Source of the DNA: Alphaproteobacteria bacterium
Lineage (GTDB): Bacteria; Pseudomonadota; Alphaproteobacteria; Rs-D84; CASDRH01
Assembly: GCA_025210155.1 (NCBI GenBank)
Contig: JAOASE010000007.1
Coordinates: 1 to 58,619 of the forward strand
Reading direction: 5' to 3'
Length of the DNA stretch: 58,619 bases
The translations under genes were made by a program, and so were the position numbers. This document shows, in pieces, positions 9,375 through 19,338 of the stretch. The notes beneath the pieces are model-generated. The model was not told where the DNA came from, made no database searches, and was given only the letters and a program-made list of their open reading frames with translations. Every line of letters starts with the position of its first letter. The first letter of the stretch is position 1.

Positions 9375-9845
9375 TTATTCTATATATCTAAGAGTGATAT
9401 CTGAAGTACCTGTATCAACACAATTAACATCTATACTTTCAGCTTCTCTCCAACCCAAAGATTTAGCGAAGTGACAATCTGCTTCTTCATCAAGGAATAT
9501 AGTAATTTCAAAATAATCGCTATCTTGACCTTCTAGTTCATATCCAGGATCAGTACCCATAGCATTAAAAGAATCCATAATTTGAGCATCTACGAAAGCA
9601 CTTTCAAAACTCATTTGTTTTCCAGTAGGATTAGTCGCTACCCAATAACCAAATTCATCAGGTAAGGTTAATGACCTAACATGACTAACAATTTCAGCCA
9701 CTTCAGATTTTAAATTATTTCCTTTAATTCTTCTATTAGCAGAGTTAAATGCTGTAACACCTAAAACAGTAATAATAGACATAATAGCTAGAACACCTAG
9801 CATTTCGATCAAAGAACGACCTTTTTCATTTTTAATAGATAACAT
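9375..9845 (-). CDS. type IV pilin-like prepilin
   Basis: Class III signal: a short charged leader MLSIKNEKG, then RSLIEMLGVLAIMSIITVLGV. The cleavage site is after Gly9, with Glu at mature position 5, followed by a 20-residue hydrophobic helix. Arg instead of Phe at +1 is unusual. The globular part has two Cys (CHF, NCVD) that could form the pilin D-region disulfide. 156 aa. AAAGGAG 8 bases before the ATG at 9845 fixes the start. It has its own promoter (about TTGATT-N17-TATAAT on minus, 9875-9905) and sits behind the terminator of the Cys-rich operon. Its processing enzyme is probably the peptidase at 17793. Confidence 0.8.
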   Translation of the reverse strand: MLSIKNEKGRSLIEMLGVLAIMSIITVLGVTAFNSANRRIKGNNLKSEVAEIVSHVRSLTLPDEFGYWVATNPTGKQMSFESAFVDAQIMDSFNAMGTDPGYELEGQDSDYFEITIFLDEEADCHFAKSLGWREAESIDVNCVDTGTSDITLRYIE

Positions 9846-9957
9846 CTTAGTTACTCCTTTTTTATTTCTATAACACATTATAAATCAAATTAGCAACCAA
9901 ATCAAATGATATTTTGAATTTTTAAGATGACTATTTAACTATTAGGATTAAAAAGAA

Positions 9958-9984
9958 AATCCCCACTCAATAGAGCAGGGAATT
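9958..9984 (-). terminator. terminator at the end of the Cys-rich operon
   Basis: Read on minus, TCCCTGCTC-TATT-GAGTGGGGA followed by TTTTCTTTTT. It separates the 10013 gene from the pilin-like gene. Confidence 0.75.
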
Positions 9985-10012
9985 ATTAAAATAGTCTTTC
10001 AGCTTTTGCCGT

Positions 10013-12583
10013 TTAAAACATATCATACTCCAACTTAATTCTCTCACCTTCGTTAGCAATCACACCTTCAACAGCAGAAGCATTTTGATTAGTAATAACA
10101 CATTTACCTTCAATAAGCTCTTTGTTTTGGCTATTTTGCATAACAGCTTGAGTGATTTGAAGTCCACCTTGCATAACATTGTTTAATCCGCTTTTTCTAG
10201 TATCTCTAGCATCAGAAATATTAGAAGAGTAAGATTTTTTATCTTTTTCAAGATTAATCAATCCTTGTTTAGCAGCATTATACTCAGCCATATCAGCTTT
10301 ATATTTTTGTTGATACAGAACTAATCTTCTTTGAAGTTTCTTCATATCTTTTTGCATTTCAGCATCCCCATCATTCATACAAGCTTTATAATCAGCCATT
10401 ACACTTTTTCCGTCTTCAGCAGGATTAAAGTCAGATTTAATCTTCCCATTATCATAGACGCTTTGTTTAACATAATCACGACATAAGTTCATAAGGAATG
10501 CACCCATATCATTATATTCATTTCCACCATCTCTAGTCCAAATAACTTGTCTTCCTGTTTTGATAGAGAAGGCTGCAATAGCTAAAGATTTTTCAATACA
10601 ATTTTCATCTTTATTATTAGCGCTATTACAATGAGATAAATCAATAGCACCATTTTCATCATCCATATCAACAGGATTTTGTCTATCCCAAACTTCACTT
10701 TCATAAGTTTGATAAGTTTTCATATTCATACCAAGTCTACCAGCAGAACCAGAGTGTCTTTCTAAACAAGAATAATATTTTTCTTCTGCAGTTAAGAATA
10801 ACTCATATTTAGCTTTTTCATCATCTCCAGCTTTAGCATTTAACCAATTACTATCAGCAGTTCTATAAGCTGTTAAGTGAGCTTCACAAGCAGTGGCCGC
10901 ATCACCAGTTAAAGAAACTTGAGCATCTTTAAGATCTTTTCTTTTGGCCATTAATTGACCTCTATAAGAATCTTCGAAAGCAACCCATTTACCACCAGCA
11001 GAAGAACATTCTGACTCATTGTAAACATAACCTTTTTTAGCTTTAGCATAACCTTTTTTCTTAGTGTCGCCAACTTTAGCAGTTTTTCTAAAAGATATAC
11101 CTGATTTTTTAACAAGACATTGATCAAATCTAATTTCAGCATCTGCCCATAGATCATTACCAAATTCATCATTATCTACGAAACCTCTATCTAAGAACAT
11201 TTTAACTCTTTCAAAATCACCTTTAGCATTCTTTAATAGTTTTTCATATTGAGTCTTATCAGCTGTTTTTATTTTTCTACCACCACAGTTCGTCATTTCA
11301 GAACCATCTTTAGCAATACAAAGACCATTATTTTTAGCACAAGACTCTGCCGTTTTAGGTCTAGCAACTTTATCACACATTTCACCTTCCATGAATGCTT
11401 TTTCTTTAACTTCAGAGGCCTTAACACCAGCAGTAGCAGCACTTACACCACCAATTAACACGTCAATAGATCCATTAATCAATTGGCTCATAGCAGCACC
11501 ATCATGTTTCATCTTAACTTTATAAGTCATTTTATCTTCTGATAAATTAAAGTTTTCTCTAGAACACAACATTCTTGAATTTTGACCTAAGAAGAACTTA
11601 AGAGGGTAGTATTTACCTTTTGAAACATTCACACCTTCAGGAGTAGTAGCACCCTTTTGTAAAGGACCATAACCAATATACACAGGACATTTACCAGAAG
11701 CATCTCTATAAGAAGTTAATCTTTCATATTTGTAATAACCATCAGAACCATAAGCAAACATCTTTCTTTCACAAGAATCTATCTCTTTAGGTTTAGAATA
11801 ATTTTGCATAGTAGGGTGGCTTACAGGACATTTTACAGCACCATCTTTAATTTCAGGTTTAACAGCAACCCCTCTAACGTCTATACAATATTTATCTTGA
11901 TAAACATAAGAAGGAGTTTCAGTATCAGTATTTAAATCAATACAGTCAGAAACAACAACACTTTCATCAGGATTAACAGTTTCAGCAACCTCTATATCCC
12001 AGTCAACAACAGATAACTCAGCTTCAGAAGTGTTAACTCTAGATTTTTTATAAAGATATTTTACTCTATGAGAAGTTTCTTTATCTTTTGCACCGGCAAA
12101 CAATTCTTCATCAGTAAAGCTTGAATTAATATTACCACAAGCAGATAAGAAAGTTTTATTCATATCATTTAGGAAATCATACAAAGCTCTAGTTCCATGA
12201 CCAGTTTCTTCTAACTCTTCTTCACAAGAAGATGATAGTAAAGAATACGCCGCTGAAGTATCGAAACATTTTCCATAAGGATTTCCGAAACCTTCACAAT
12301 ATCTAGCAGCACATTTTTTGGCAACTCTCTTACCCTTAGAAGAACTATAATCTTTTTTAAGACAATCTTCATCATCACTATCACATTCATCGTCTTCGTC
12401 ATCTTCATCATCAGTAGATGTTGTTGATGTAGAAGAAAAAGGTGAATACACATTCGTAGTAGGTGCATTTGTATAAGGAACTGTAACTTTACCTCTAGCT
12501 ACAACATCTTTCATATTAAACGAAAATAGTGCAACAAAACAAAGAGTTAAGAACAGCATAAAATTAAAAGATTTTTTAGTCAT
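10013..12583 (-). CDS. large secreted Cys-rich paralogue 5 of the 10-18 kb operon
   Basis: 856 aa, the largest of five related genes. N-terminal hydrophobic signal (SFNMKDVVA, then RGKVTVP), a Ser/Asp-rich acidic linker (DDEDDEDDECDSDDEDC), then motif CAARYCEGFGNPYGKCF matching the CM..xC...KCF motif of its neighbours. The family signature LGQNSRMLCSRENFN is near residue 340. It then has an extra Cys- and Lys-rich segment absent from the smaller paralogues, and ends with CVITNQN....EGERIKLEYDMF, the family C-terminal signature. AAGGGAAA upstream is a weak ribosome site. Last gene of the operon. Function unknown; probably envelope or surface. Confidence 0.75.
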   Translation of the reverse strand: MTKKSFNFMLFLTLCFVALFSFNMKDVVARGKVTVPYTNAPTTNVYSPFSSTSTTSTDDEDDEDDECDSDDEDCLKKDYSSSKGKRVAKKCAARYCEGFGNPYGKCFDTSAAYSLLSSSCEEELEETGHGTRALYDFLNDMNKTFLSACGNINSSFTDEELFAGAKDKETSHRVKYLYKKSRVNTSEAELSVVDWDIEVAETVNPDESVVVSDCIDLNTDTETPSYVYQDKYCIDVRGVAVKPEIKDGAVKCPVSHPTMQNYSKPKEIDSCERKMFAYGSDGYYKYERLTSYRDASGKCPVYIGYGPLQKGATTPEGVNVSKGKYYPLKFFLGQNSRMLCSRENFNLSEDKMTYKVKMKHDGAAMSQLINGSIDVLIGGVSAATAGVKASEVKEKAFMEGEMCDKVARPKTAESCAKNNGLCIAKDGSEMTNCGGRKIKTADKTQYEKLLKNAKGDFERVKMFLDRGFVDNDEFGNDLWADAEIRFDQCLVKKSGISFRKTAKVGDTKKKGYAKAKKGYVYNESECSSAGGKWVAFEDSYRGQLMAKRKDLKDAQVSLTGDAATACEAHLTAYRTADSNWLNAKAGDDEKAKYELFLTAEEKYYSCLERHSGSAGRLGMNMKTYQTYESEVWDRQNPVDMDDENGAIDLSHCNSANNKDENCIEKSLAIAAFSIKTGRQVIWTRDGGNEYNDMGAFLMNLCRDYVKQSVYDNGKIKSDFNPAEDGKSVMADYKACMNDGDAEMQKDMKKLQRRLVLYQQKYKADMAEYNAAKQGLINLEKDKKSYSSNISDARDTRKSGLNNVMQGGLQITQAVMQNSQNKELIEGKCVITNQNASAVEGVIANEGERIKLEYDMF

Positions 12584-12663
12584 GATAAATATTTCCCTTT
12601 TTTATATCCCATATAGGTGCAATTATAGCACAATTTCAACTTCAAAACAAATGTTTTCGTAAG

Positions 12664-13902
12664 TTAATAAATCCATTCAATCTTAACAGTATTTTCTTCC
12701 GGAATTATTTCATTTCCAAACTCACAAACACCGTAAATTTGATCTGCGGATCTCTCCATTTCCTTTTGATTTATAGAAGATTCAACTATGCCACCTACAC
12801 CAGTAGCAACTCCCTCAAAACTATCCATATCAAGGTAAACTTCACCTTCAGAACTATAAGAAGAATAATCTTTTTCGGCTGCTCTTTTTGCTCTCTCAAA
12901 CGAAGCATCTGTTTTATAATCTTCTCTTAAAACGTCAATCTTAGCATCAGCTTTAGCCTGTACTTTTCTTCTTCTATTTACTTCTTTTTCAATATCTGCT
13001 AAGTTCGAATCAGAGGTAAAAGCCCCTTTATCATCTCCTAAAGCCTCCAAAGCTTCCGCCTTTTTCTTTTTACCACTTTTAAAACCACTCAAATCAATGC
13101 TTGATGCCATATTGATAGCAGCTAAACCTGTTTGAACAGATCCCATAATAACAGCCATCTTATGTCCAGTATCATCAACTTTTTCTCTCTTAATACCTAA
13201 TCCAAAAGTCTCATATCCACACATAAATCTTTTACCAACTGTAAACCACTTCTCAGCTATTTCTCCATCTCTTTTATAAGTAACTTTATATTCACAAGTA
13301 TCCTTATCTTCTTTCCATTTACCACCACCATCAGCACATAAAGAAACTTTTCTTTTCTTAATCATCTTAGCAACTTCGTCTTCCAAAGCAACAACATCAA
13401 AACTCTCAGAAATATCATTTTCCTCAACAGCTTCTAAAAAAGCAGATTCAAATTTATATTTATTAAAACATCCTAAATACATAGGAGCAGAACTACCAGC
13501 AGAGCAAATATCTTGCATAGTTTTTTTAATTTGCTTAAATTCCTCACTAGACTCCATATCAACTGGGCTAACTAAAACATCTTCAGCACCCTCAACAACA
13601 CTTTCAGACTGAACCACAACACCAGAATCGGTATCTACAACAGTTTGCGAAGAAGTCTCTAACTGTTCACTAGTAGCATTTAATTGTTCCTGTAATTTAC
13701 TCAAAGAATCGTTAGAAGAGGGTGTAGTAACTTCATTACCTGCAAAAGGGTTGACCACTTCAGCAGATGCCGGTGTAGCAACTTGATTGCCTGCGGTTCT
13801 AACTCGTCTACCTCTCGCAGCAAAAGAATGTTTAGCAAAACTATTAATGACAAATAGCTCAGCAACTAACATAACAGAAACTATCTTTCTTGAAACTCTC
13901 AT
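12664..13902 (-). CDS. secreted Cys-rich paralogue 4
   Basis: 412 aa. N-terminal signal (RKIVSVMLVAELFVINSFAKHSFA), then ARGRRVRTAGNQVATPAS, which matches the RGRMRREVSNTVATPAP start of paralogue 3. Family motifs: ICSAGSSAPMYLGCF, CADGGGKWKEDKDTCEYKV, TVGKRFMCGYETFGL, and the C-terminal YGVCEFGNEIIPEENTVKI-EWIY. The first N-terminal Cys repeat of paralogues 1-3 is missing. AGGGAGG 6 bases before the ATG. 63 bases follow paralogue 3. Unknown function. Confidence 0.75.
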   Translation of the reverse strand: MRVSRKIVSVMLVAELFVINSFAKHSFAARGRRVRTAGNQVATPASAEVVNPFAGNEVTTPSSNDSLSKLQEQLNATSEQLETSSQTVVDTDSGVVVQSESVVEGAEDVLVSPVDMESSEEFKQIKKTMQDICSAGSSAPMYLGCFNKYKFESAFLEAVEENDISESFDVVALEDEVAKMIKKRKVSLCADGGGKWKEDKDTCEYKVTYKRDGEIAEKWFTVGKRFMCGYETFGLGIKREKVDDTGHKMAVIMGSVQTGLAAINMASSIDLSGFKSGKKKKAEALEALGDDKGAFTSDSNLADIEKEVNRRRKVQAKADAKIDVLREDYKTDASFERAKRAAEKDYSSYSSEGEVYLDMDSFEGVATGVGGIVESSINQKEMERSADQIYGVCEFGNEIIPEENTVKIEWIY

Positions 13903-13965
13903 AAAATCCTCCCTAAATATCTAAGAAAAATATATCATTTTTTATAAATCAAATCAAACTAAAAG

Positions 13966-15489
13966 TTAAAACTTATAAAAATCTTTCCACATTAAAGTCA
14001 TGACTTGACCTTCTTGAGCTACCATCTGCCCATTCACCCAACAAGACCCTTTAGCTCTAACTTCAACAGAGTATTTTTCTATAGCACTATACTTTTTAAT
14101 ATCAGCAATTCCATTAGTAATGTCTCCAGCAGCAGATAAAATATTTCCAACGCCACCCATTGCAGCACCAACTCCAGCACCAGCAAGAGCTCCTACAGTT
14201 GCACCAGTGCCACCACTAGTAGCACTTGCGGCTTTCCCAGTAACTTCAGCAACCTCTCCAACATTTTTTTTAAGCTTTTCATTACCACTTGCAGAAACAG
14301 CGACATTAGCCAAACTTGTACCTACAGCAGCATAGCTAGAAACTTTTGCAGTCTTATCAATAACACTTAAAGTCTTAGCATATTTAGCGCTATCGGCAAA
14401 TTTCTGAAGTTTTGTAGCTTTATCAGCGGCTTTAGCAGCAGCATCTATACCTTTCGAAGCTGAATTTGCAGCAGTACTCGCAGCATTTCCACCAGGAGTA
14501 GCAACATTGGCAACAGCAGCAACTAACTGCACACCACCATTAATAGTGTCAGCGTAAGCACGGTTTTTCATTTTCTTAGCATTCTGCTTGGCAATAGACT
14601 TAACTACAGGAGTTTCTGTACCAAAATATTCTTGAGAACACATAATTGTATCACCCATCTTAAAAGTCATCTCCTTAAGAGGTTTTTCAGAAGTAACACC
14701 ATAAGATACTTTAACATCACACCCATAAGGATCATCAGCCGTAGAAGCATGTCCTAAATCAGCACAAAAGTCTTGCATTCTAACTTTCATAGAATTAACA
14801 AAATACTCTTTTAATCCAAGGTTACTATGACTTTTAGCAATAATATGAGAGCACTCATTAAGCAAAACCTCTGCCTCATCTAGATCAAAACATTTAACAA
14901 AAGGAACATAATCAGGCATTCCTTTATCTCCCTTGCAAACAGGTTCCATACAAGCTTCCAACTGTTTCAACTCATCATAAATAGTTGGTTCAACTTCAGG
15001 GTTCTTAGCTGCCCACCCAACACAATCAGACTGAGAAGTTATAGCAAAAGAATTTTTCAAACCACTTTCCATGCCAGAACATTTATCTAAAATAGCCTTA
15101 CACTGCGTCTCAGAATATTGAAGTAATTCAATACCTTCCTTAACCATATAACCATCTAAATCATAAAACTGAGCTAGTTCACCATTATCTTTATTCATAT
15201 TTAATGCTGAGGCCGAACAAGAACAAGCTCCCTTAACATCATCTTGTATACAATATTTATTCATACACATAGAATAAAACAGTTCACAACTTTCAGAGTT
15301 AACCAAATAACCTGGTATCCCAATAAGCTCCATAACCTTATCTTTTTCAGGTTGTATAACCGGGGCAGGGGTAGCAACAGTGTTGGAAACTTCTCTTCTC
15401 ATTCTACCTCTAGGAGCTGCTATAACAGTGCTAACCAAAATAGCAAAAGCACTAACTCCAACAAATAAACTTAAAACTTTTTTATTCAT
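13966..15489 (-). CDS. secreted Cys-rich paralogue 3 with glycine-zipper segment
   Basis: 507 aa. Signal peptide ends near VIAAPRG. First Cys repeat SCELFYSMCMNKYC...CSCS (about 66-92), second repeat ACMEPVCKGD...VKCF, third CADLGH...GCDVKVSYG, then KMGDTIMCSQEYFGT. A long Ala/Gly-rich hydrophobic region follows (NAASTAANSASKGIDAAAKA; GATVGALAGAGVGAAMGGVG), a glycine-zipper-like segment that may insert in a membrane or oligomerise. Ends with CWVNGQMVAQEGQVMTLMW. GGGAGAG before the ATG. 18 bases after paralogue 2, so co-transcribed. Confidence 0.78.
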   Translation of the reverse strand: MNKKVLSLFVGVSAFAILVSTVIAAPRGRMRREVSNTVATPAPVIQPEKDKVMELIGIPGYLVNSESCELFYSMCMNKYCIQDDVKGACSCSASALNMNKDNGELAQFYDLDGYMVKEGIELLQYSETQCKAILDKCSGMESGLKNSFAITSQSDCVGWAAKNPEVEPTIYDELKQLEACMEPVCKGDKGMPDYVPFVKCFDLDEAEVLLNECSHIIAKSHSNLGLKEYFVNSMKVRMQDFCADLGHASTADDPYGCDVKVSYGVTSEKPLKEMTFKMGDTIMCSQEYFGTETPVVKSIAKQNAKKMKNRAYADTINGGVQLVAAVANVATPGGNAASTAANSASKGIDAAAKAADKATKLQKFADSAKYAKTLSVIDKTAKVSSYAAVGTSLANVAVSASGNEKLKKNVGEVAEVTGKAASATSGGTGATVGALAGAGVGAAMGGVGNILSAAGDITNGIADIKKYSAIEKYSVEVRAKGSCWVNGQMVAQEGQVMTLMWKDFYKF

Positions 15490-15507
15490 ATTGAATTCTC
15501 TCCCAAA

Positions 15508-16758
15508 TTATTCAATCCAATTTAATTTAAACTTCGCACCTTCCTGTATAATAGGTCTTTGATCCATAAAACAAAATAGGTTGTTCTTAGAAGTATCTAT
15601 AATCTTCTTACTTTGCTCATTCAATTGCTCAGTTCTTACCATAGCATTCATAATACCACTAACAGCAAACAAAGAAGAACTCAATCCAGATGAAACCATA
15701 TTCACAGTTCTCATACCTTTTTGAAATCCTGTAGCGGTATCAGTAACTTTCTTACCAGTCTCTGCTGCAGCTTCTGCAACTTTATTAGCAGCCTTACTAG
15801 CCTCAGCAGCTGAAACTATACCACCAACAGTATTTGCAACAGCTCCTGTAATACTTATATAGCTTCCAACAACTCTAATTTTCTCACTTTGTATCAAAGC
15901 CTTTTGCAATTTAGCAGTATTATCTTTAACCTTAGCAACGGTATTAAATCCTGCCTCAGTACAATCTATAATATCACCAATCCCAAACATTCTAGTAGCA
16001 AATATCTTCATACCAGTTTCTTGAGTCTGAGCAACGTCTTGGGCATCTCTTTGTCTAGCATTGTTTGGCTTATAATATCCAAACGCAATCTCTACTTTAC
16101 ATTCACCAGCATTATTAGCTGCATTAACAATTTGCCCAGAATCAATTCTATCGCAATAAACTCTTTTAACATTTCCCATATCAGATAAGAATTCTTCCTT
16201 AAGCTCCATTAACTGACCAGGAGAATCGGCATGGGCAGAACAATGATTTCCAACTTTATTAATAGCATCAGCAGTAAAACACTTAGTAAACTGTAAATCA
16301 GGATCCTTTCCCTCAGAACACAAAGGTTTCATACAAGATTTAAATTTCTCATATCTACCAAAATAAGAATCTTCAGCGGCCTTTTGCAAATTGGTCTTAA
16401 TATTTCCCAAAGCTAATTGAGCGCAGTCATTATCCATAGCCATTTTATACTCTGAAACAATCTTTCTCTTAAGAGTAGGGCATTGATTTAATAAAGAAGC
16501 ACATTCTTGTTTTTGCTTAACATAAACAGAATATCCAATAGGTTTGATATCTGCTCGTTTATCTTCAGGTATATTTTGTTCGGCCATAGAAGAACAACCA
16601 CATCTTCCAAAACCATCGTTATAACATTGTAAATTCATACATCTATCATAAAGTCTCTTACAATCACTATTTTCTATATTATTCAGGTCTATAGCAAAAG
16701 ATTTGTTCGCAATAAAACAAGAAGATAAAATAGATAAAGTTAAAATAAATTTTTTCAT
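15508..16758 (-). CDS. secreted Cys-rich paralogue 2
   Basis: 416 aa with a clear signal peptide (FILTLSILSSCFIANKSFA, then IDLNN). Cys repeats: DCKRLYDRCMNLQCYNDG...CGCS, SCMKPLCSEGKDPD...TKCF, YCDRI...GECKVEIAFGY, then GIGDIIDCTEAGFN. A hydrophobic Ala/Gly region precedes the C-terminal signature CFMDQRPIIQEGAKFKLNWIE. Its ATG overlaps the TAA of paralogue 1 by one base (TAATG), with GGAGGT upstream, so translation is probably coupled. Function unknown. Confidence 0.78.
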   Translation of the reverse strand: MKKFILTLSILSSCFIANKSFAIDLNNIENSDCKRLYDRCMNLQCYNDGFGRCGCSSMAEQNIPEDKRADIKPIGYSVYVKQKQECASLLNQCPTLKRKIVSEYKMAMDNDCAQLALGNIKTNLQKAAEDSYFGRYEKFKSCMKPLCSEGKDPDLQFTKCFTADAINKVGNHCSAHADSPGQLMELKEEFLSDMGNVKRVYCDRIDSGQIVNAANNAGECKVEIAFGYYKPNNARQRDAQDVAQTQETGMKIFATRMFGIGDIIDCTEAGFNTVAKVKDNTAKLQKALIQSEKIRVVGSYISITGAVANTVGGIVSAAEASKAANKVAEAAAETGKKVTDTATGFQKGMRTVNMVSSGLSSSLFAVSGIMNAMVRTEQLNEQSKKIIDTSKNNLFCFMDQRPIIQEGAKFKLNWIE

Positions 16759-17771
16759 TATTGATCCATACCTCCAATAATAAACATATCACCTTCTTCA
16801 GCAACTTGCTGATCATTCATAAAACAAGCACCTCTTTTTGCAAGGGTAATTCTATTCATTTCTTTAACCGTATTAGCAGCCATTTCTGTAGTCATAGCAG
16901 CAGCATTAATAATCATAGTAACAATATTAGGAATGGCCTTAACGACATTCACAACACCTTTAACAGAAGTAACAATAGCATCTAAGAAAAAAGTGCTTTT
17001 CTCTTTTCTAGTACCAAGGTCTACATCAAAGTAATTTTGAGCACACTCAACTACTTCACCCATAACAAATTCTTTTCTTTTCTTAACAGTCTTCATATTT
17101 TCAGCCCTGAATTCTACCATGAAAGAACACTTCATTGTATTATTATCGAAAATAGCCCCGGGATTATCCATGCAAAAATTAAATTGAGCCTTTCTAATCT
17201 CATCATACATTTCAGCTTTAATAGTAAACGGAGTAGAGGACTTAGCCAAAACATCTTCACATTTTTTCTCTAGAATTTCCATTTTATAAGGCTTCCAACA
17301 GTTTATATATTGTGGAGCATCTGGATTAGTAGGGTCAGCGCATTGTTCTCTCATGCAGTTTCTATAAAACTTATAATGGTAACCATAGTTCTCACCTTTA
17401 GCTTTACTAGAAAGATAACTCTGTATATTAGCAACAGCTTGAACATTCTTAGCATCTATTTGGAATGCTAACTCAAACATATCTCTTTTATGTCTATCCT
17501 TTATAGAAAAGGTACACATAGCATTCGCATAATTAAATAACTCCCTACCTTTTCTTAATTTAGCACCATTAACATTTACATACTCATTTCCCTTATAATC
17601 TTTATTGCAAGCTAAAATGCCGTTACCATCGGTAACAGCGTTATTACAAAATTCCTTAACGCACTTATAAAAAGTATTGTACTCCTCATCAGCCACATTC
17701 ATCGCAAAAGCCACTGATGAAACTAAAGAAATAGCAATAGAAACAATTCCCAATTTAAAAAGCTTAATCAT
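16758..17771 (-). CDS. secreted Cys-rich paralogue 1
   Basis: 337 aa, the smallest family member. Signal peptide MIKLFKLGIVSIAISLVSS-VAFA. Cys repeats: FYKCVKEFCNNAV (C37, C42), FYRNCMREQCADP...YINCW, FCMDNPG...KCSFMVEF, then FVMGEVVECAQNYFDV. A hydrophobic stretch (IVTMIINAAAMTTEMAANTV) leads to the C-terminal signature CFMNDQQVAEEGDMFII. AAGGGGGAG before the ATG. First structural gene behind the prepilin peptidase (21 bases). The regular Cys pairs suggest disulfides formed in the periplasm. No named family recognised. Confidence 0.78.
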   Translation of the reverse strand: MIKLFKLGIVSIAISLVSSVAFAMNVADEEYNTFYKCVKEFCNNAVTDGNGILACNKDYKGNEYVNVNGAKLRKGRELFNYANAMCTFSIKDRHKRDMFELAFQIDAKNVQAVANIQSYLSSKAKGENYGYHYKFYRNCMREQCADPTNPDAPQYINCWKPYKMEILEKKCEDVLAKSSTPFTIKAEMYDEIRKAQFNFCMDNPGAIFDNNTMKCSFMVEFRAENMKTVKKRKEFVMGEVVECAQNYFDVDLGTRKEKSTFFLDAIVTSVKGVVNVVKAIPNIVTMIINAAAMTTEMAANTVKEMNRITLAKRGACFMNDQQVAEEGDMFIIGGMDQ

Positions 17772-17792
17772 AAAATCTCCCCCTTTATAGTT

Positions 17793-18602
17793 TTAAGCCA
17801 AAACACCATATGCAAATATGCTCAACAATGATAATAAAGCAAACGGAGCATAAGGTAAATATCTCATTCTAAGTACCAAAGACGCCATAGCAAAATAAAC
17901 GATTGATACTATTATCAAATAAGGAAAATAAGTAAACCCAAGTAAAGCACCCAAGAAAATCAATAGCTTAAGATCTCCGCCACCAAACCCATCAGGGTAT
18001 TTCTTGTATGTAATAACAGTTAGAATGATACAAAGTAAATAAGCATAAATGGAACACATAGCACTATTTAAAACAGAAGGTGATGTATAATGTAAAATTC
18101 CAGCCAACAATTTAGAATTGTTAGCAACAACATCAATAGTAGTCAAATCTACATAATATCCTTTTAAAGCCACAAAAAGAAAAGTAACCAATATAGCAGG
18201 GAAAGAAATCAAATCCGGTATCAAACAAAACTTTCTATCAATCTCTGAGATAAGAAATATCATATAAGCAAGAATTAAAAACACAATAACTAGAGGTAAA
18301 AACAAAGAATCTATAGCTAGATACATATTATAAGAAAGAGCCGCAAAAACAGACCCTAAAATAAGATGTCTAAACAATCTTTTTCTAAGCATTTTAGCTC
18401 TAACATCCATCCAGTATTTTCTACCAGATATCTTCTTGTTTTTCATAAGCTTTTTCCATCCCTTATATTTTAAAATAAGCTCGGCATTTGTATATCCGAA
18501 CATCCTAACTATATAAGAGCCAAAACACTCCATTTTAAAGCCTAAATAAAACGGCAATAATGCAAAAAAAATAAAACCTAATATATCGCAAAATAAACTC
18601 AT
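17793..18602 (-). CDS. prepilin peptidase (type IV prepilin / TadV-PilD family)
   Basis: Integral membrane aspartyl protease that removes the leader of type IV prepilins. About seven hydrophobic segments, with SEIDRKFCLIPDLISFP (D122, D130) and GFGGGDLKLL (D210) in the places of the two catalytic aspartates. The N-terminal CxxC methylase domain of classical PilD is not seen; instead there is a basic loop (KKLMKNKKISGRKYW). The start is uncertain: ATG at 18602 has GGA 10 bases upstream, and 18611 or a TTG at 18641 are possible. First gene of the Cys-rich operon, which implies that the operon builds or decorates a pilin-based structure. Confidence 0.88.
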   Translation of the reverse strand: MSLFCDILGFIFFALLPFYLGFKMECFGSYIVRMFGYTNAELILKYKGWKKLMKNKKISGRKYWMDVRAKMLRKRLFRHLILGSVFAALSYNMYLAIDSLFLPLVIVFLILAYMIFLISEIDRKFCLIPDLISFPAILVTFLFVALKGYYVDLTTIDVVANNSKLLAGILHYTSPSVLNSAMCSIYAYLLCIILTVITYKKYPDGFGGGDLKLLIFLGALLGFTYFPYLIIVSIVYFAMASLVLRMRYLPYAPFALLSLLSIFAYGVLA

Positions 18603-18626: not shown

Positions 18627-18700
18627 TTGACAGTTACCCAATCATTCTATATAATTCTCATATCAATTAATATTCTAACACAATTTCGTTAACAAGACAA
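18627..18700. promoter_or_regulatory. divergent promoters of gcrA and of the prepilin peptidase operon
   Basis: Plus: TTGACA (18627-18632), 17-base spacer, TATAAT (18650-18655), directed to gcrA. Minus: TTGTCT (18695-18700), 17-base spacer, TAGAAT (18672-18677), directed to the peptidase and Cys-rich genes. The two overlap back to back within 75 bases, so a regulator bound here could affect both. Confidence 0.7.
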
Positions 18701-18723: not shown

Positions 18724-19338
18724 ATGAAAAATAATAGCTGGACAGACAAAAAAGTTGAAAAATTAAAAAAGTACTTAGCAAAGGGACTTACTACTTCAGA
18801 AATAGGTAAAAAGTTAGACCTTTCTAAGAATGCTGTTATAGGAAAAATTCATAGATTAAAACTTAACGAAACTATTAAAAAAGAGACTCCTGCTAAAAAG
18901 CCTAGTCTATTCAAGAGCTTATCTATTAAAAAAACTCCTGAAAAAACAGCGAAGAAAGCATCTCCAAAAGCTAAAAAAGAAGGTACTAAAAAAGCTACTA
19001 AAGCAAAAACTTTAGAACTTCCTCTAGGTGAAGCTCCAGCTAAAGAAGCTAAAAAGGCAGTTAAAAAAACTACTAAATCTACTAAAAAAGAAACTACTTC
19101 TGAAGAAAAAGAAATCAAAGTTATTGAAAAGCCTGCTACTAAAAAAGCATCAGCTCCTGCTTCTACAGGCAAAGGCTATAAACTTCAAGATATCGGTTTT
19201 AATATGTGTAAATGGCCACTAGAAGAGGGTGACGAAGACGGTAACTTCTTATTCTGTGGATGCCAAACTGAAGATAAAAAACAATATTGCGCTGAACACC
19301 TTGCAGAAGCTTATGTTCAACAGGACGATAAAAAGTAG
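18724..19338 (+). CDS. gcrA: GcrA family cell-cycle regulator
   Basis: The N-terminal 45 residues are the GcrA helix-turn-helix: SWTDKKVEKLKKYLAKGLTT then SEIGKKLDLSKNAVIGKIHR. The C-terminus has the sigma70-binding part: MCKWPLEEGD, FCGCQTE, YCAEHLAEAY. Between them lies an unusually long Lys/Ala/Thr-rich linker (about 50-150). GcrA binds RNA polymerase sigma70 and stimulates promoters with CcrM-methylated GANTC sites; it is confined to Alphaproteobacteria, which anchors the taxonomy of this window. 204 aa against about 170 in Caulobacter; the linker explains the difference. Stop TAG. Confidence 0.95.
   Translation: MKNNSWTDKKVEKLKKYLAKGLTTSEIGKKLDLSKNAVIGKIHRLKLNETIKKETPAKKPSLFKSLSIKKTPEKTAKKASPKAKKEGTKKATKAKTLELPLGEAPAKEAKKAVKKTTKSTKKETTSEEKEIKVIEKPATKKASAPASTGKGYKLQDIGFNMCKWPLEEGDEDGNFLFCGCQTEDKKQYCAEHLAEAYVQQDDKK

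What the first reader, a model, noticed from the sequence alone, without database searches (positions are those of the whole stretch)
9375..18602. Prepilin-peptidase operon with five tandem Cys-rich secreted paralogues: candidate undescribed surface system
Seen: five consecutive minus-strand genes (17771, 16758, 15489, 13902, 12583 starts), all secreted, share an order of motifs: CM-xxx-C...KCF; C...C-x-V-x-(Y/F); M/LG-xxxx-C-xxx-(Y/N)F; a hydrophobic Ala/Gly stretch; and a C-terminal C...G/QxxxxEG...W-like end. One pair overlaps TAATG. The first gene of the unit is a prepilin peptidase with both catalytic Asp, and a pilin-like gene follows. Known: such peptidases process type IV pilins and Tad pilins, which need ATPase and platform proteins, not seen here. 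Inference: the five proteins are accessory or structural parts of a pilin-based surface fibre, expanded by tandem duplication.
Basis: partly seen in the sequence, partly recalled or inferred. Interest (0 to 1): 0.82.

Follow-up and report, generated by a model that had tools for sequence, protein, structure and literature searches.

The report
Order-specific disulfide-rich secreted protein operon
A reduced-genome gut bacterium carries a five-gene tandem family of secreted, cysteine-rich proteins that occurs in every sampled member of its order and nowhere else sampled, sits in its own family and one other behind the cell's only pilin-cutting enzyme, and may help its pilus or surface contact other cells.

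Summary
Downstream of a prepilin peptidase with both catalytic Asp lie five secreted, Cys-rich proteins. Four (A-D) are clear paralogues; the fifth (E, 856 aa) is a strongly diverged paralogue with large insertions, shown by three colinear profile matches (0 of 1000 shuffles each). The last gene of the reported interval, a pilin, is a separate transcription unit behind a strong terminator. The Cys family has no Pfam, NCBIfam, PHROG or PDB relative and no fold match. It occurs in 142 of 142 sampled genomes of the order (20 of 20 genera) and in none of the several hundred other Pseudomonadota sampled. Peptidase-A-B-C-D order is conserved in one other family; in the largest family the Cys genes lie elsewhere, and three unrelated secreted genes follow the peptidase. 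Mostly even Cys numbers and a DsbA-like protein support disulfide folding. Best reading: Sec-exported, disulfide-bonded surface or periplasmic proteins functionally coupled to the type IVb pilus. The coupling is inferred, not shown; part of the linkage could be conserved synteny.

The parts
18724..19338 (+). gcrA, divergent neighbour; anchors the locus in f1, f3 and f5
   Evidence: PF07750 E 5e-28; divergent gcrA-peptidase pair seen in f1, f3 and f5 loci
17793..18602 (-). prepilin peptidase (A24), likely ATG start at 18602; open frame reaches 18641 (TTG)
   Evidence: PF01478 over cut-off; catalytic Asp invariant in alignment of 10 homologues
16758..17771 (-). Cys-family paralogue A, 337 aa
   Evidence: blastp/hhalign paralogy; tree groups it with f3 A, support 85/93; AF2 mean pLDDT 76.5
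15508..16758 (-). Cys-family paralogue B, 416 aa; overlaps A by 1 base
   Evidence: same position as B in f3
13966..15489 (-). Cys-family paralogue C, 507 aa
   Evidence: tree 92/87 with f3 C
12664..13902 (-). Cys-family paralogue D, 412 aa
   Evidence: tree 90/73 with f3 D
10013..12583 (-). Cys-family paralogue E, 856 aa, strongly diverged with long insertions; not found by sequence search in 141 other genomes of the order
   Evidence: profile blocks vs shuffles; search
9960..9981 (-). intrinsic terminator ending the unit after E
9877..9905 (-). promoter-like site for the pilin (TTGATT-17-TATAAT)
   Evidence: consensus match only
9375..9845 (-). type IV pilin, separate transcription unit; likely start 9845 (open frame to 9878)
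   Evidence: PF07963 18.0 bits, E 0.002, below cut-off; NCBIfam pilin models; about 18 further pilin matches in the genome

Best explanation
A-E are Sec-exported, disulfide-folded proteins of a family restricted to one order of reduced-genome gut Alphaproteobacteria. They work as surface or periplasmic accessory proteins of the order's type IVb pilus. The peptidase made first in the operon matures the dispersed pilins, the motor operon elsewhere builds the pilus, and A-E fold in the periplasm and act at the outer face (secretin/tip/contact zone), probably in attachment to partner cells. Shown: paralogy, conserved gene order, order restriction in the samples, presence of the pilus motor, peptidase and pilins, and Cys numbers that are mostly even. 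Inferred: disulfides, co-transcription, location, physical contact with the pilus, role in attachment.
For: Only PF01478 gene in the genome lies first in the operon. Peptidase-A-B-C-D order conserved in f3, with gaps under 200 bp in 9 of 9 f1/f3 genomes. Orthogroups A, C and D are each recovered with the window's copy. In f5 three unrelated secreted proteins follow the same gcrA-divergent peptidase, so secreted genes occupy this slot twice. In two f3 genomes a family member lies directly beside a pilin (L100, L108). Type IVb motor operon: TcpQ, PilN secretin, PilO, PilP, ATPase, platform; ATPase and platform families in 40 of 41 genomes each. Mature Cys count even in 24 of 27 f3 members and 5 of 5 here; DsbA-like family in 19 of 21 genomes. 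A type IVb pilus that works with a secreted operon protein is known (TcpF; PMC9565799), and type IV pili drive host contact in reduced-genome episymbionts (PMC12206443, title and abstract).
Against: In f5 the best Cys-family locus is not beside the peptidase (0 of 21). The flanking block gcrA-coiled coil-(rodZ-like)-hisS-prfA is conserved too, so linkage may be plain synteny. The motor operon is on another contig. No pilin signal in A-E. No fold match to any pilus protein. Co-occurrence is uninformative because the whole order has both. DsbB not found (0 of 21).
Confidence: 0.42

Rival explanations
1. The Cys family is a general envelope or surface family with its own job. It sits behind the peptidase only because this compact genome keeps its gene order in f1 and f3.
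For: Wider block gcrA-coiled coil-hisS-prfA also conserved; f5 keeps gcrA-peptidase but has its best Cys-family locus elsewhere; family order-wide whatever its place.
Against: Secreted proteins follow the peptidase in f1, f3 and again, unrelated ones, in f5; two f3 members sit beside pilins.
Confidence: 0.33
2. A-E are cargo of the type IVb pilus, exported through its secretin as TcpF is in the cholera pilus, and act as soluble colonisation factors.
For: TcpF precedent: operon-encoded soluble protein secreted through minor pilin binding (PMC9565799, abstract); A-E have signal peptides and no pilin motif.
Against: TcpF is encoded within its pilus operon; here the pilus motor is on another contig. 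Hydrophobic Gly/Ala segments are unusual for soluble cargo. No sequence or fold match.
Confidence: 0.14
3. A-E are contact effectors whose variable hydrophobic helical segment inserts into a partner cell's membrane.
For: In the A model the beta-strands of the C-terminal part are interrupted by a low-confidence helical segment; its length varies between paralogues. The order, if it is Rs-D84, is proposed to live on other cells (PMC12306168).
Against: Hydropathy 1.2-1.6 in most, below usual TM values; no immunity gene; found in all members of the order rather than patchily.
Confidence: 0.07

Closest known systems
Type IVb pilus of the R64/TCP kind (PilN-PilO-PilP-PilQ-PilR, TcpQ)
   Same: This genome has the secretin, PilO, a weak PilP, ATPase, platform, a TcpQ-domain protein, A24 peptidase and many pilins.
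   Different: Genes are scattered; peptidase is next to gcrA and a new Cys-rich family instead of in the pilus operon; no named type IVb system matches A-E.
TcpF-type T4bP-dependent secreted proteins
   Same: Secreted, non-pilin proteins associated with type IVb pilus genes (PMC9565799).
   Different: Here a tandem family of 4-5 with 6-26 mature Cys, encoded with the peptidase and not with the motor; no sequence or fold similarity found.
Tad pilus tip (minor pilin) complexes of Myxococcus
   Same: Idea of several secreted subunits customising a pilus for contact; prepilin peptidase linked to tip maturation (PMC12075869, abstract and section list).
   Different: Those are minor pilins on a Tad pilus; A-E have no pilin signal and the motor here is type IVb.
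TraN-like Cys-rich conjugation proteins (from memory)
   Same: Secreted, many conserved Cys, contact function.
   Different: No Pfam match over a cut-off for A-E.

Membership tests
Type IVb pilus (genome level) | PilN-type secretin | tested here: met
   TIGR02520 E 2e-65 (below its curated cut-off), PF00263 over cut-off
Type IVb pilus (genome level) | PilO (PF06864) and TcpQ (PF10671) | tested here: met
   E 1e-13 and 3e-16, both over cut-off
Type IVb pilus (genome level) | Extension ATPase and platform protein | tested here: met
   PF00437 E 2e-68, PF00482 E 9e-19, adjacent genes
Type IVb pilus (genome level) | Prepilin peptidase and prepilins | tested here: met
Type IVb pilus (genome level) | A filament is made | not testable with these tools
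   needs microscopy
A-E as pilins | Type III signal G-[x]-S-[LM]-I-E-hydrophobic | tested here: not met
   Ordinary Sec-type N-termini; no N_methyl hit
Tad pilus | TadA-type ATPase with single-domain TadB/TadC platform proteins | tested here: not met
   ATPase is GspE/PilB-like (TadA model only E 1e-11) and the platform is one two-domain protein
TraN or any Pfam/NCBIfam/PHROG family | Profile match | tested here: not met
   No curated family over its cut-off for A-E; scans of 31 family members gave no consistent family
Known fold | Foldseek match to PDB or BFVD | tested here: not met
   No match at E <= 0.001; C model is low confidence
GTDB order Rs-D84 | Taxonomic assignment | not testable with these tools
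   Genome sizes 0.5-1.1 Mb, gut/termite MAG titles and one dominant genus fit the published description (PMC12306168); inference only

The most novel reading that the evidence does not exclude
A-D(E) form a previously undescribed, order-defining extracellular complex with a new fold (Cys-rich helical domain plus a beta-domain interrupted by a hydrophobic helical segment) that, with the type IVb pilus, is the contact apparatus by which these reduced-genome bacteria hold on to and feed from partner cells.
Probability: 0.2. Interest if true: 0.82.

Novelty: new variant of a known kind. Interest (0 to 1): 0.6.

Why it matters
A published survey of the order Rs-D84 (PMC12306168), to which this genome probably belongs, reports no pili or named surface apparatus for it and suggests that its members obtain metabolites from other cells by unknown connections. 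If the assignment is right, this work adds a type IVb pilus motor in nearly every genome examined and a secreted protein family found in every genome sampled and in no outgroup sampled. Together they are concrete candidates for the contact machinery. The family has no known relative or fold and is well suited to structure work.

Tried and rejected
Pfam, NCBIfam and PHROGs scans of A-E and PDB sequence search: nothing of note. Plasmid and phage collections with C: no match. Foldseek of the A model (PDB, viral) and C model (PDB): nothing significant. Tad pilus: rejected on ATPase and platform type. The 320-330-aa T2SSE hits in relatives as a pilus retraction ATPase: read as VirB11 by eye, one with a VirB10-like gene nearby; no family scan was run on them. 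The two Cys-rich proteins at the end of contig C3 as further family members: not supported by hhalign. f5 genes X, Y, Z as distant relatives of A-D: not supported. DsbB search: absent.

Full report
What is there. On the minus strand, 18602 to 10013, lie a prepilin peptidase and five secreted Cys-rich proteins A (337 aa), B (416), C (507), D (412) and E (856). Gaps are 21, -1, 18, 63 and 80 bases. After E stands a clear intrinsic terminator (stem 9981-9960 followed by TTTTCTTTTT, -14.6 kcal/mol, z -3.9). A promoter-like site and the pilin's own ribosome site follow, so the pilin (likely 9845-9375) is a separate unit. Upstream, divergent, is gcrA.

Paralogy. A-D find each other by blastp and by profile. 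E finds nothing alone, but three colinear blocks match profiles that hold no E, 0 of 1000 shuffles reaching any of the three with profile A5. The core of the family is CM...C......CF, C, C...V.YG, G....C....F, then a Gly/Ala-rich hydrophobic stretch, and G.C...NG....E.....W at the end (alignments A4-A6).

Distribution. A profile of A-D type proteins matches 142 of 142 genomes and 20 of 20 genera of the order at E <= 0.001. In 135 of the 142 the best E-value is below 1e-10; the weak ones include the three f6 genomes. The same profile matches none of 380 other genomes in the class sample and none of 396 other genomes in the phylum sample; these two samples overlap in part. E was found only in this genome. 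Named relatives are uncultured gut and termite-gut Alphaproteobacteria MAGs.

Gene order. In f3 genomes the order gcrA <- -> peptidase-A-B-C-D recurs, and a tree places the window's A, C and D with their positional counterparts (85/93, 92/87, 90/73; B unresolved). The duplications are therefore older than the split of f1 and f3. Gaps between peptidase and first Cys gene are under 200 bases in 9 of 9 f1/f3 genomes where both were found, but the best Cys-family hit is on another contig or more than 100 kb away in 21 of 21 f5 genomes. In f5 the peptidase stays beside gcrA but is followed by three other secreted genes, X, Y and Z, which show no sequence relation to A-D. The slot behind the peptidase thus holds secreted proteins in both lineages, which argues for a link. 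On the other hand the upstream block is conserved as well, which argues for plain synteny.

The pilus. The window lacks a motor, but the genome has one on contig C6 (L128): TcpQ-domain protein, PilN-type secretin, PilO, weak PilP, ATPase, platform protein. ATPase and platform families are in 40 of 41 genomes each, pilins in 41 of 41, and the peptidase in 36 of 41, 33 of 34 of the more complete ones.

Disulfides. Cys counts of the mature proteins are even in 24 of 27 f3 members and in all five here, and many differences between orthologues are by two (signal peptides cut by a simple rule, related sequences not independent). One odd case is cut by a contig end. A DsbA-like family is present in 19 of 21 genomes; DsbB was not found in any.

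Structure. AlphaFold2 gives a good model for A (mean pLDDT 76.5; 135 residues at 90 or more): a helical Cys-rich N-terminal part and a beta part whose last strands come after a low-confidence helical segment. C is weaker (67.8) but shows the same order of elements. No PDB or viral fold matches.

Mechanism. The best reading is accessory proteins of the type IVb pilus, exported by Sec, folded with disulfides, acting at the cell surface. The link to the pilus is inferred from genome position only. The strongest rival is an independent surface family kept in place by synteny; cargo and membrane-inserting readings are less likely. Co-occurrence cannot separate them because the whole order has both parts.

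Noticed in passing
G000 C1:6641-8251, C3:2788-4302, C3:18-1178 (cut), C4:38787-41959 (two genes), C11:37897-39450, C5:27366-28469 (cut): At least six very large pilins (about 370-540 aa, 16-26 Cys), plus a cut frame C3:18-1178 (34 Cys) that lacks the pilin start and looks like the rear part of another: an ordinary pilin domain, a linker and Cys-pair repeats, suggestive of PilV-like tip adhesins.
   Followed up: partly
G000, whole genome: 19 pilin matches in this genome against 1-3 in each of 40 relatives.
   Followed up: partly
L134:6646-9594 (G000 C3:80645-83593): Two further Cys-rich secreted proteins in tandem, followed by two pilins at a contig end; not members of the A-E family by hhalign.
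   Followed up: partly
L142:9415-13578 and f5 counterparts in L182-L190: In f5 the gcrA-linked peptidase is followed by three conserved secreted genes of unknown family (X about 300, Y 358-499, Z about 590 aa), two with long Ala-rich hydrophobic regions.
   Followed up: partly
21 genomes of the order: DsbA-like protein present but no DsbB found although secreted proteins are rich in Cys; how DsbA is reoxidised is open.
   Followed up: no
L177-L179: Most relatives have a second T2SSE-family protein of about 320-330 aa, read by eye as VirB11, one with a VirB10-like gene nearby; this genome has only the pilus ATPase match.
   Followed up: partly
window 18627-18655: A perfect sigma-70 consensus (TTGACA-17-TATAAT) on the plus strand between the peptidase and gcrA.
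   Followed up: no
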